Shown here: piece after piece, positions 3,122-14,564 of the stretch
Layout: each line of letters begins with the position of its first letter
Numbering within the stretch: the first letter of the stretch is position 1
Assembly: GCA_020029535.1 (NCBI GenBank)
Contig: JAIBJM010000007.1
Coordinates: forward strand, 1-64,000
Origin: Gammaproteobacteria bacterium
GTDB taxonomy: Bacteria > Pseudomonadota > Gammaproteobacteria > Steroidobacterales > Steroidobacteraceae
Length of the DNA: 64,000 nucleotides
Direction: 5' to 3'
Position numbers and translations under genes: made by a program
Notes under the pieces: model-generated
Databases searched by the model: none
Told to the model about the DNA's origin: nothing
The model's input: the letters and a program-made list of their open reading frames with translations, nothing else

Positions 3122-4130
3122 AACGGTGCACGACGCATTGCATGGCGAGCTGGTGCACACCCGCGCCGAACGCGACCTGTGCCGTGCGTTGCTGCTGATG
3201 GATCATGGCAGCAGCCAGCACTTCAAGCGTGAGGCGCGCACTGCCATCGAACGCATACCGGCGCTGCTGCGCGAACCGGCGCGGGAATCGGCCGCCTTCA
3301 AGTTCAAGCTGCAGCGCCTCAGCGGCGAGATGCAGCGCCTGCATGAACTGGCGCTGGAACTGCAGCTGCCGCCACTGGCCGAGCAGATCGAGACTGCCGA
3401 CACAGCGCTGCGGCGCCTGTGCGCACAACTGGAACCCACCGGGGACGATTTTCTGCCGGTGCTGCCGCTGTACGACGGACTGCTGAACACGCTGCGCACC
3501 GTATGCCCGCCCGAGCTCGAACTGGACCCGTCTGATGCCGATGATGCCAAGGCCAGTGCGTCCAGCCTCAGCCTGCGCTCTGTGCCCGGCAAGCTGGAAC
3601 TGGCGCTGCAGCAGCTGGCTGCGCAACTGGTCACTCAGCATCAGAAGGAACTGCGCTTGCTGGTGCGCGGCTTTGCCGACATTCCGGGCGAATGGCACAG
3701 CACACTGTTCGACGTGGCCAGCCAGCTGCTGCGCAACGCGGTCGAATATGGCATCGAAACACCCGAAGTGCGCAGCGCGGCGGGCAAGCCGGTCAGCGGC
3801 ACCGTCGAAGTCGAATTCACGGTGCGCGATCAGCTCATCGAGCTCAGCTTCCGCGACGATGGCCAGGGTCTGGATGCCGAGCGCATTCTCGACGCGGGCA
3901 TTTCACTGGGTCTGCTGTCGGCCGAATCCGACCGCGATGTGCGTCGTGCGGCCGGCCTTATCTTCCGCGCCGGACTCAGCACCGCAGTCGACCCGCAGGG
4001 CCGCGGCCACGGCATGCAGATCGTGCGCGACCGTATCCGCAAGCTCGGCGGGCAGATACAGATCTCAACCAAGAAGGGCCGCTACACCGTGGTCCGCGCC
4101 GATCTGCCACTGAATATTTCAGCGGCTTGA
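3111..4130 (+). CDS. CheA-like HATPase-domain protein
   Basis: LLRNAVEYGIE (N box), DDGQGLD, IFRAGLSTA, GRGHGMQIVRDRI. ATG at 3111 overlaps the upstream stop. Confidence 0.75.
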   Translation: MQSETVHDALHGELVHTRAERDLCRALLLMDHGSSQHFKREARTAIERIPALLREPARESAAFKFKLQRLSGEMQRLHELALELQLPPLAEQIETADTALRRLCAQLEPTGDDFLPVLPLYDGLLNTLRTVCPPELELDPSDADDAKASASSLSLRSVPGKLELALQQLAAQLVTQHQKELRLLVRGFADIPGEWHSTLFDVASQLLRNAVEYGIETPEVRSAAGKPVSGTVEVEFTVRDQLIELSFRDDGQGLDAERILDAGISLGLLSAESDRDVRRAAGLIFRAGLSTAVDPQGRGHGMQIVRDRIRKLGGQIQISTKKGRYTVVRADLPLNISAA

Positions 4131-10992: not shown

Positions 10993-11018
10993 TTCGCCCT
11001 AATTAAAAGTTAGATGCC

Positions 11019-11492
11019 ATGAAGCTCTGTGGCTTTGCTCGGGTGGCGTTGCTGGGTGTAGCGGCAGGCTTCTGTGTTGCAGCCGTAGCAGCTGACGAAT
11101 CCGCGCGATTTCTCAAGGCTCACGACAAATGGAACGCACTTAGCGCAAAGACTTATACCTACGACCTCGGAGTTAGCATTGGTGCCGTCTTTGGATACGG
11201 GCACTTTCATGTGAAGGTGAAAGATGGCCGTTGTCTTGCTCGGCACTACGCTGGAGTCGGGCTCGGTCGTCCTAGCTTCGGTGATCGACTCCGATACAGA
11301 CCATGCGATGACTATCTTCCGGCGGACCTCTTTAAGTTGGTTGGAGACGACATAGCCAGAGGATGGAAGGTGAAGGATCTTACGACCGATGCCAGGTACG
11401 GGTTTCCCAGTCGCGCTTCAATCGACAACGATGGCACCATTGAGGATCAGGGGTGGGCCTTTGAGATCACCAACTTCAGGCTTCGCCAGTGA
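11019..11492 (+). CDS. secreted DUF6174-like protein, probable integron cassette gene
   Basis: Signal peptide, LSAKTYTYDLG...FHVKVKDGRC. Preceded by GTTAGAT (11009-11015) and followed by its complement ATCTAAC (11506-11512). Confidence 0.6.
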   Translation: MKLCGFARVALLGVAAGFCVAAVAADESARFLKAHDKWNALSAKTYTYDLGVSIGAVFGYGHFHVKVKDGRCLARHYAGVGLGRPSFGDRLRYRPCDDYLPADLFKLVGDDIARGWKVKDLTTDARYGFPSRASIDNDGTIEDQGWAFEITNFRLRQ

Positions 11493-11535
11493 CGTTTCGC
11501 TACGCATCTAACCCGTCGTATATGGACTCCCCCTG

Positions 11536-11786
11536 CAAGTAGCAGAGTCGATCATTTTTCTGGCTTGAGGAAACACTTGCAGTCGTATATCCGGCATCGT
11601 GAGTGGGATCTGAAAGTCCCGTGCCGACATGGAATCTGCAACTGACCAGCGCCAATCGTTGCGAACGGCAGGCAAGCTGCCGGAAGAGTTACCGGCGTCT
11701 TGATCAGCGGAAGTCATCCTGAGAGCCATGATGGGTGATCAATCTCTGCGCAAGTGAAGGATTAAAGCATCCAGGTAGTAAGTTGA
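11536..11786 (-). ncRNA. candidate seeker/bridge RNA region of the IS1111-like element
   Basis: About 250 bp with no convincing ORF, downstream of the transposase and inside the IR. Contains GTCGTATAT (also left flank 11515-11523) and TGATGGG (reverse complement of right flank CCCATCA 12956-12962). Confidence 0.4.
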
Positions 11787-12866
11787 TCAGGTGGGCATGG
11801 CAAAGGCCACGCGGCTACGTTTGTGATTCAGTCGAGTCGCGTCATACGGCGCATGATTTCTGAGCACCGCATAACAGATGCGCGCCAGCTTGTTGGCCAG
11901 TGCACAGGTGGCCTTGTTGTGGCAACTGCGCTGCTGCACGGTCAGCGCCCAGGTTCGCAATTGATCCAGTGGTCTACCCATGCGCTTGGCCACGGTGGCG
12001 GCGCGCAAGACGGCACGGGCACCATGCGTGAGCAACATGCGCAGGTAGCGATCTCCGCGTTTGGAGATGCGTCCCAAATGTCGAGTGCTGCCCGATGAAT
12101 GTTCCTTGGGTGTCAGGCCAAACCACGCGGCAAAGTGTCTGGCATCTTTGAAATGCGAGACTTCGCCGCTGGTGGCTGCCACCATCGCCGTGGCGGTGAG
12201 CAAGCCGATACCAGGAACGGAGAGTAACGTCTCGCACGCCGCTGACTGCTTGGCCAGCCTGGACAGCTCACGTTCCAGCTCCGTGATGCGCGCCTCCAGT
12301 AGACGAACTTCCGCCACCAGCAAGCTCATCGGTGGGCGCAATAGAGTCGGCAGGTCCGACTGCGGATCAGCCAAGAGTCGACTGATCTGCTCCAGTCCCA
12401 GCCGCGAACCGACGGCAATCGAAATGCCAAACTCCCGACAGAAGCCGCGCAGAGCATTGATGCGGGACGTGCGCGTGCCCATCCACAGCGAACGGGTTCG
12501 ATGCAGCGCTTGCAAAGCTTGTTGCTCTACCGACTTGATCTTGACCGGCATGATGTCGGCACAGCGGGCTGCTTCCAGCATCGCTTCGGCGTCTGCTGCA
12601 TCGGTCTTGTTGCGCTTCACGTAGGCGCGGATGTAACGCGCTGGCAGCAGCCGGACTCCGATACCCAGACCCACAAGACGACGCGCCCAGTAATGGGCCG
12701 AGCCGCAAGCTTCCATGATGACTACACCGACAGCTCGGTTGACGAAAAATCGCTCAAACTGCGTTCGAGTCAAGCGATGTCGCTCCACCACCCGCCAGTG
12801 AGCATCGGCCACGGCGACCTGGAAAACACTCTTTGCGAGATCGACCGCCACGGTATTAGCATGCAT
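11787..12866 (-). CDS. IS110-family (IS1111-type) transposase
   Basis: MHANTVAVDLAKSVFQVAV...MEACGSAHYWARRL...ARYIRAYVKRNKTDAADAEAM...LLSVPGIGLLTATAMVA...HFAAWFGLTPKEHSSG. Confidence 0.95.
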   Translation of the reverse strand: MHANTVAVDLAKSVFQVAVADAHWRVVERHRLTRTQFERFFVNRAVGVVIMEACGSAHYWARRLVGLGIGVRLLPARYIRAYVKRNKTDAADAEAMLEAARCADIMPVKIKSVEQQALQALHRTRSLWMGTRTSRINALRGFCREFGISIAVGSRLGLEQISRLLADPQSDLPTLLRPPMSLLVAEVRLLEARITELERELSRLAKQSAACETLLSVPGIGLLTATAMVAATSGEVSHFKDARHFAAWFGLTPKEHSSGSTRHLGRISKRGDRYLRMLLTHGARAVLRAATVAKRMGRPLDQLRTWALTVQQRSCHNKATCALANKLARICYAVLRNHAPYDATRLNHKRSRVAFAMPT

Positions 12867-13046
12867 GACAGGACTCCTTCTGGTTGACGCTGACACCCAC
12901 ACCACATGAGTACAGCAGGTGACATGATGCACCTTCAAAATCAGGGGGAGTCCATCCCATCACTGGAGCGCATCTATCGAGTGGTCGCTGGCAGTCAACT
13001 ATTCGAAGTTGTTTCAGTCACTGCACATGATTACCGGAGGCCTTAA

Positions 13047-13307
13047 ATGAGTCAGTTTCGTCCCGCTAAACGCCGCGTAATCGTGTCGGTTGGTGAATCC
13101 GTGCGCATCATTCGCGAGCTTCAAGAACTTAGCCAGAATCAGCTCGCGCAGCTCACGGGTATACCTCAAGCCACGATTTCGGCGATTGAAAATGACCGGG
13201 TTAGCCTTGGAGTCGAACGGGCAAAGGTTCTGGCCCGAGCGCTGAAGTGCCATCCCGCAGTACTGGTCTTTCCTGGTTGGGATTCCAGTCAGCAATCTGC
13301 GGCATAA
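13047..13307 (+). CDS. XRE-family helix-turn-helix regulator, probable cassette gene
   Basis: VRIIRELQELSQNQLAQLTGIPQATISAIENDRVSLGVERAKVLARALKCHPAVLVFP. Confidence 0.85.
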   Translation: MSQFRPAKRRVIVSVGESVRIIRELQELSQNQLAQLTGIPQATISAIENDRVSLGVERAKVLARALKCHPAVLVFPGWDSSQQSAA

Positions 13308-13360
13308 CAGATCATTCGAGGCGACGGGGAACGCGCTCCGGTTCAATAGCAACGTTATGC
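13302..13360 (+). other. attC-like 59-bp element
   Basis: GCATAAC (13302-13308) ... GTTATGC (13354-13360); the ends are exact inverse complements and overlap the stop of the upstream small gene. Confidence 0.65.
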
Positions 13361-13390
13361 CGCCATGACGTTTGCAATTGGAGAATATTG

Positions 13391-13723
13391 ATGCCGAGTC
13401 CGGTCTACGCCCTTAACCTCTTCGATGTTGCGAATCGGGATGAGTACATCGCGTACTCCCGGCGCTCGGTCAAGGAGGTCCAGGCTCACGGCGGCCGAGT
13501 AGTCGCGCTCGGAAAGTTTCGTGAGGTTGCAGTTGGCGACATGGCACCCCGCATGGTTCTCATTCTTGTCGAGTGGGCGTCCAGGGAGGCTTTTGAGAGC
13601 TACCGCGATGATCCAGCCCTCGCAGACCTCCATCCGCACCGGGTCAATGGCACTCGGAACTACATCTGGCACCTTTTCGACAAGCTTGAGGATCTCAGGC
13701 CGATACTTAAGGCGGTCTCATGA
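13391..13723 (+). CDS. DUF1330-like protein, probable cassette gene
   Basis: MPSPVYALNLFDVANRDEYIAYSRRSVKEVQAHGGRVVALGKF...ASREAFESYRDDPA. Confidence 0.75.
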   Translation: MPSPVYALNLFDVANRDEYIAYSRRSVKEVQAHGGRVVALGKFREVAVGDMAPRMVLILVEWASREAFESYRDDPALADLHPHRVNGTRNYIWHLFDKLEDLRPILKAVS

Positions 13724-13727
13724 GCGG

Positions 13728-13754
13728 AACACCTGCAGTCGTATATCCGGCATC
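13728..13754. repeat. 27-bp near-exact copy of a segment inside the IS1111-like element
   Basis: AACAC[C/T]TGCAGTCGTATATCCGGCATC at 13728-13754 and 11572-11598, one mismatch. Confidence 0.85.
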
Positions 13755-13774
13755 TTGGCTTCGAGCGCGCGCGT

Positions 13775-14167
13775 TCAGTGAGCGGACTTCAAACCCAGAT
13801 GCCTGACAAACGGATCGAAATCGCGATCGGAATACAGCAGCGGCATGCGGTTTTCGATGCACCAGGTGGCGATCACGGCGTCGATGGTCTTGCGCACGCT
13901 GATGCCGCGTTTGCGAAGCGCGCGGTAGTTGTCGGCGGTCTTGATTGCCAGCCTTGCGCCGAGCAGGTCGTAAACAGCAAGACTGGCGAGCAATTCGCTG
14001 GCTGACTTGTAGTCGGCGTCGCTGCGGAACCCCTGCAGCACTTCCACCAGAATCAGGTCGCCGATGGCGATGGGCTCCCTGCCCAGCAGGGTGTCGAGGA
14101 AATCCGCTTCAGGACTGGTGTTGCCGTTGAAGTAATCCACCCAGACGCTGGAATCGACCAGGATCAC
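13775..14167 (-). CDS. vapC: VapC-type PIN-domain toxin
   Basis: MILVDSSVWVDYFNG...ILVEVLQGF...RKTIDAVIATWCIENRMPLLYSDRDFDPF. Confidence 0.9.
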   Translation of the reverse strand: MILVDSSVWVDYFNGNTSPEADFLDTLLGREPIAIGDLILVEVLQGFRSDADYKSASELLASLAVYDLLGARLAIKTADNYRALRKRGISVRKTIDAVIATWCIENRMPLLYSDRDFDPFVRHLGLKSAH

Positions 14168-14358
14168 CGGTCAAGTCGCATCCGGTCCAGGTCGTCGCGC
14201 CACTTCAGCTTGCCGCGAAAACCCTTCAGGGCTTCCTGCTTCTTCAGCTGGATCAGGGCCTTCAGCCCCAGTTCCACGGCTTCCTTCTTGGTGCGGGCGC
14301 CGCTGGCCCTGATGGCGTCGGCGATCAGCTTTTCATCGATGACAATGTTGGTCCGCAT
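14164..14358 (-). CDS. vapB: VapB-type antitoxin
   Basis: MRTNIVIDEKLIADAIRASGARTKKEAVELGLKALI; 4-bp overlap with vapC. Confidence 0.88.
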   Translation of the reverse strand: MRTNIVIDEKLIADAIRASGARTKKEAVELGLKALIQLKKQEALKGFRGKLKWRDDLDRMRLDR

Positions 14359-14379
14359 GGCGGTTTCCATGTGTATGGT

Positions 14380-14397
14380 TGTGTCATATTATACACA
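14380..14397 (-). promoter_or_regulatory. vapBC promoter/operator
   Basis: TGTGT(CATATTAT)ACACA inverted repeat embedding TATAAT on the minus strand, just upstream of vapB. Confidence 0.5.
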
Positions 14398-14564
14398 CGA
14401 GGTGCAGCCTGCCTTTCTTGCGTGATCGGCATGATTGACGGCCCGGCCGCTTGGCTGATGGACGTCAGCCGCTTCTGACGTCGCGCATCGCCCTTTGCGA
14501 AACGCGAGGCCGGCGGCGTGGACGATAATGTACCCATGCAGGCGCCTGAGGCAGGAGGACAGCG

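What the first reader, a model, noticed from the sequence alone, without database searches (positions are those of the whole stretch)
11506..12962. IS1111-like element in or near an attC half-site, with guide-like matches to both flanks
The element sits right after ATCTAAC (the inverse of cassette-start GTTAGAT), matching the known behaviour of IS1111-attC elements that target integron attC sites. The ~250-bp non-coding end contains GTCGTATAT, identical to the left flank (11515-11523), and TGATGGG (11729-11735), the exact reverse complement of the right flank CCCATCA (12956-12962). One top-strand and one bottom-strand match is the arrangement expected for an IS1111/IS110 seeker or bridge RNA guide.
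Basis: partly seen in the sequence, partly recalled or inferred. Interest (0 to 1): 0.65.

Follow-up and report, generated by a model that had tools for sequence, protein, structure and literature searches.

The report
IS1111-attC insertion sequence with bridge RNA

Summary
The element is real: a 1444-bp IS1111-family insertion sequence on the minus strand (11519-12962). It has a 359-aa DEDD transposase, 14-bp sub-terminal inverted repeats, a 7-bp left tip (TGATGGG), a 3-bp right tip (ATA) and a ~250-nt non-coding end. It sits beside the R'' box of an integron attC. Nearly all relatives with readable ends have the same tips at the same attC position. The closest named relative found is ISPa25 (51% identity), so it belongs to the IS1111-attC group.

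Both quoted string matches exist but were misread. CCCATCA/TGATGGG is the element's own left tip, not target. GTCGTATAT is element end plus only four target bases, and is invariant across relatives with different flanks.

The non-coding RNA folds into a conserved two-loop, bridge-RNA-like structure with compensatory changes. The segments that covary with the target lie elsewhere: 11682-11691 (antisense to the right flank) and 11656-11665 (sense of the left flank). Across 37 elements they covary with individual targets (permutation p < 5e-5 and 2.5e-4; relatedness not corrected). The donor guide is 11629-11635.

Verdict: new member of a known kind. One oddity is unexplained: a solitary 30-nt copy of one RNA segment at 13728-13757.

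The parts
11519..12962 (-). Complete IS1111-attC insertion sequence, 1444 bp
   Evidence: Ends set by comparison with about 50 relatives sharing TGATGGG-sTIR ... sTIR-ATA
12956..12962 (-). 7-bp left tip TGATGGG (element, not target)
   Evidence: Near-invariant in relatives
12942..12955 (-). Left sub-terminal inverted repeat ATGGACTCCCCCTG
   Evidence: Perfect 14-bp inverted pair
11522..11535 (-). Right sub-terminal inverted repeat
11519..11521 (-). 3-bp right tip ATA
   Evidence: Invariant in relatives
11787..12866 (-). Transposase gene, 359 aa from ATG (the longer TTG start at 12938 is unlikely)
   Evidence: NF033542, PF01548, PF02371; alignment with ISPa25 starts at this Met
11542..11749 (-). 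Predicted guide RNA; terminal stem 11736-11749 with 11542-11554
   Evidence: Fold z = -2.76; stem with compensatory changes in relatives
11649..11699 (-). Target-binding hairpin
11682..11691 (-). Right-target guide TAACTCTTCC, antisense to attC positions +10..+1 (R'' side)
   Evidence: Permutation p < 5e-5
11656..11665 (-). Left-target guide TTCG(C)AACGA, sense of attC positions -6..+3 with one extra base
   Evidence: Permutation p = 2.5e-4, only in this register
11579..11639 (-). Donor-binding hairpin
11629..11635 (-). Donor guide ATTCCAT, antisense to the left-end tip (ATGGGAT, +3..+9)
   Evidence: Homologous segment changes with the tip in L079/L089 and L081; perfect in L007, L077; poor in L076, L086
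11582..11590 (-).
   Evidence: Invariant in 37 aligned elements; present in elements whose right flanks lack the attC box
11729..11735 (-).
   Evidence: Exact in 21/48 relatives and does not follow tip changes
11504..11518 (+). attC left part: R'' box GCATCTAAC plus spacer CCGTCG (the target right flank in element orientation)
   Evidence: Same R''/spacer arrangement beside the right end in relatives
11009..11518 (+). Gene cassette carrying a DUF6174 ORF (11019-11492); starts GTTAGATGC, matching its own R'' box
13301..13361 (+). Intact-looking attC (GGCATAAC...GTTATGCC) after a small HTH gene
13728..13757 (-). Solitary copy of the 3' half of the donor loop; probable relic of another IS1111-attC copy

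Best explanation
An intact IS1111-attC insertion sequence. The transposase binds an RNA made from the non-coding end downstream of its gene. One internal loop of that RNA pairs with the attC target: a 5' guide is antisense to the R''-side flank (TAACNNNTC) and a 3' guide is the sense of the L''-side flank (CT[T/C]GA|CGA). The second loop pairs with the element's own joined ends: ATTCCAT with the left tip, ATATACGA with the right tip. The enzyme then inserts the circular element in one orientation between the R'' spacer and L'' of a cassette attC. Shown here: element anatomy, ends, target position, conserved RNA structure, guide-target and (in a few elements) guide-donor covariation. Inferred from published relatives: RNA expression, circular intermediate, catalysis.
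For: Transposase families NF033542, PF01548 and PF02371 and 51% identity to ISPa25, which sits at the same position beside a blaOXA-17 cassette. Relatives with readable ends carry the same tips beside attC R''/L'' sequence. RNA structure: 97.3% of cells paired and 67 double-sided changes against 18 in shuffles; slid versions pair at 19-47%. Guide-target covariation: left guide 232 matches vs 214 expected, p = 2.5e-4; right guide 245 vs 225, p < 5e-5. Natural retargeting in L045, where the RNA reads TAAGTTC and the target GAACTTA. The donor guide follows the left tip in L079/L089 and L081. An integron integrase above its cut-off lies on another contig of this genome.
Against: The second half of the attC (L', R') cannot be found to the right of the element, so either the target was partly deleted or the array was rearranged. 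The left-target guide matches this copy's left flank imperfectly (T, C and A of CTCCAG). Only one copy exists in the genome and no empty site was found, so the exact junction rests on relatives. The covariation shuffles do not correct for relatedness, the diagonals were chosen partly from the same data, and one slid control for the right guide (+3) also gave a low p, at a much lower match rate (17% against 66%).
Confidence: 0.92

Rival explanations
1. One reading: GTCGTATAT and TGATGGG are the two target guides, one per strand.
For: Both exact matches exist.
Against: Both match mostly or wholly element sequence, not target. GTCGTATAT is invariant across different targets and present in elements whose right flanks lack the attC box. 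CCCATCA does not follow tip changes.
Confidence: 0.03
2. The element is an ordinary IS1111-attC copy but is dead here: it inserted long ago, and a later deletion next to its left end removed the rest of the attC.
For: No R' box or L' arm in 12963-13046; single copy in the genome.
Against: Transposase frame is open and full length, both tips and repeats are perfect, and the RNA keeps its structure. A flanking deletion would block re-excision only if the left flank is needed for it.
Confidence: 0.3
3. The conserved non-coding end is a structural or regulatory RNA that does not choose the target; the transposase recognises folded attC DNA directly.
For: attC sites fold into hairpins, and L045 sits in the loop of a hairpin.
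Against: Two RNA segments covary with the flanks in the correct register only as a pair of diagonals, and the non-coding RNA was shown experimentally to determine the target for ISKpn4-type and other IS1111 elements (PMC11187229).
Confidence: 0.04

Closest known systems
ISPa25 (IS1111-attC group)
   Same: Same attC position and orientation, same 7/3-bp tips up to one base, same RNA core ATATACGA, 51% transposase identity
   Different: Its left-target guide reads CTTGAACGA without the extra base; left tip TGATGGA; repeat ATGGACTCCTCC
ISKpn4 and ISPst6 (IS1111-attC group with experimentally shown seekRNA, PMC11187229)
   Same: Target one end of attC sites and use an RNA from the end downstream of the transposase gene, top-strand match before bottom-strand match
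   Different: Their sequences were not compared here; the paper reports ISKpn4 and ISPa25 transposases as 46% identical
IS621 and other IS110-group bridge RNAs (PMC11208160)
   Same: Two internal loops, one for target and one for donor, each with two guides
   Different: RNA lies upstream of the recombinase gene, guide order is reversed, and inverted repeats are only 2-3 bp

Membership tests
IS1111 family | DEDD transposase with C-terminal PF02371 domain and G--P----SG motif | tested here: met
   PF01548, PF02371, NF033542; GLTPKEHSSG in the translation
IS1111 family | Sub-terminal inverted repeats of about 11-13 bp with 7-bp and 3-bp extensions | tested here: met
   14-bp perfect repeats; tips TGATGGG and ATA shared with relatives
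IS1111 family | Long non-coding region downstream of the transposase gene | tested here: met
   11536-11786, about 250 nt
IS1111 family | Circular intermediate | not testable with these tools
   Needs PCR or reads
IS1111-attC group | Fixed position and orientation in an attC, next to the R'' box | tested here: met
   Window and relatives; ISPa25 beside blaOXA-17
IS1111-attC group | Both halves of an attC recoverable around the element | tested here: inconclusive
   R'' half clear; no R' box found in 12963-13046
Bridge RNA / seekRNA | Conserved RNA structure with two internal loops | tested here: met
Bridge RNA / seekRNA | Guides covary with target and donor DNA | tested here: met
   Target: (relatedness not corrected); donor left end: a few elements only
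Bridge RNA / seekRNA | RNA expressed and bound by the transposase | not testable with these tools
   Needs RNA sequencing

The most novel reading that the evidence does not exclude
Within the IS1111-attC group the target guides are finely tuned to the particular attC each copy occupies, with a conserved extra base in the left-target guide, and at least one member (L045) has been naturally retargeted from attC to the loop of a long perfect hairpin.
Probability: 0.5. Interest if true: 0.45.

Novelty: new member of a known kind. Interest (0 to 1): 0.28.

Why it matters
It adds an apparently intact member to a group of RNA-guided insertion sequences that land in integron cassette sites. It corrects where the guides lie, which matters to anyone wanting to test or reprogram such elements. 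The set of related elements with their own targets is a ready natural test of guide rules in the IS1111 branch.

Tried and rejected
Rfam search of 9-20 kb: no IS110/IS1111 RNA model matched. Search of the own genome for sister copies: none. Search for an empty site or homologous array in relatives: only the HTH gene matched, in two genomes, without a usable attC. Search of 30 relatives for the stretch 13380-14400: no copy with the solitary fragment in the same context. Search for other solitary copies of the RNA core: none clear among 81 occurrences in the loci fetched. First version of the structure string had the wrong length. The Tetu and Holmes 2008 paper on the IS1111-attC group is not held in the library.

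Full report
What is there. Reading the window directly, a minus-strand transposase gene (11787-12866) is followed by about 250 nt of non-coding DNA and enclosed by perfect 14-bp inverted repeats, ATGGACTCCCCCTG. The protein is an IS110-family RNA-guided transposase (NF033542, 305 bits) with both Pfam domains of the family. Its only PDB sequence matches are the IS621 and ISCro4 transposases. It is 51% identical to the ISPa25 transposase.

Where the ends are. A search of bacterial genomes returned 65 loci encoding relatives, mainly Betaproteobacteria. In those with readable ends the left repeat is preceded by TGATGGG and the right repeat is followed by ATA, with rare single-base changes. These are the 7-bp and 3-bp terminal extensions described for the IS1111 family (PMC11187229). 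The element is therefore 11519-12962. Five of the nine bases of its left-flank match GTCGTATAT are element bases as well.

What it targets. Beyond ATA the relatives read mostly CGANNN-GTTAG, and before TGATGGG they read mostly [C/G]T[T/C]GAN. On the other strand this is the R'' box, the spacer and the start of L'' of an integron attC. ISPa25 itself occupies the same position beside a blaOXA-17 cassette. In the window the R'' box is GCATCTAAC (11504-11512), and the preceding cassette starts with its complement GTTAGATGC at 11009. A second attC lies at 13301-13361. The genome carries an integron integrase on another contig. The right half of the interrupted attC was not found in 12963-13046, so it is probably lost or rearranged.

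The RNA. The minus strand of the non-coding end folds better than dinucleotide shuffles (z = -2.76, none of 200 as good). On 41 relatives the structure has a terminal stem and two hairpins, each with a large internal loop. Of the paired cells 97.3% keep a standard pair, and 67 show changes on both sides against 18 in shuffles; slid versions pair at 19-47%. This is the two-loop architecture of bridge RNAs, predicted for most IS1111 elements in PMC11208160. The guide order is the one reported for IS1111 seekRNAs (PMC11187229).

The target guides. A scan of all variable RNA columns against all flank positions put column 91 versus +2 (antisense) first, with columns 126 versus -4, 90 versus +3 and 130 versus -1 among the top ten. 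Because that scan is large, I then tested the two diagonals these imply. The left-target guide (columns 124-133, one extra base at 128, sense) gives 232 matches against 214 expected, p = 2.5e-4. The right-target guide (columns 83-92, antisense) gives 245 against 225, p < 5e-5. At the other eight offsets match rates are at most 0.38, against 0.70 and 0.66 in register. The diagonals were chosen partly from the same data and the shuffles ignore relatedness, so the p-values are indicative. One slid control for the right guide (+3) also had p = 1e-4, but with only 17% matches. L045 is a natural retargeting case: its RNA reads GATAAGTTCG where most others read GATAACTCTT, and its target is GAACTTA in the loop of a long perfect hairpin.

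The donor guides. In the second loop, ATTCCAT (11629-11635) pairs with the left tip ATGGGAT with one wobble. The homologous segment changes with the tip in L079 and L089 (TTCATCG for CGATGAG) and in L081 (ATTTCAT for ATGAAAT), and is perfect in L007 and L077; L076 and L086 fit poorly. It is invariant in all 37 aligned elements. It also occurs in elements whose right flanks lack the attC box. It is therefore best read as the guide for the right tip.

Mechanism and novelty. The best-supported account is RNA-guided insertion into attC by an intact IS1111-attC element. The kind is known. What is added is one more member, corrected guide positions, and a set of relatives whose guides can be compared with their own targets.

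Loose end. A 30-nt copy of the 3' half of the donor loop lies alone at 13728-13757, between the stop codon of the DUF1330 gene and a PIN-domain gene. It shares 26 consecutive bases with other members of the group rather than with this copy, and no element ends lie near it. It looks like a relic of an earlier insertion, but its abrupt ends are not explained.

Noticed in passing
window 13728-13757 (minus): A solitary 30-nt copy of the conserved ATATACGACTGCA segment of the element's RNA, with no element ends nearby; 26 bases are identical to other group members rather than to this copy.
   Followed up: partly
L045 around 3316-3400: A relative inserted in the loop of a long perfect hairpin instead of a typical attC, with its right-target guide changed to match.
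   Followed up: partly
window 12963-13046: No L'/R' half of the interrupted attC can be found right of the element.
   Followed up: partly
L073 around 940-1300: In a same-family genome a relative of the window's small HTH gene follows the end of an integrase-like reading frame (read by eye, not scanned against a library).
   Followed up: no
G258, loci L083, L087, L090-L097: Multi-copy IS1111-type element with nearly the same RNA core whose listed copies share a non-attC right flank, CGGGCTGAGCTTCCAGCG in most.
   Followed up: no
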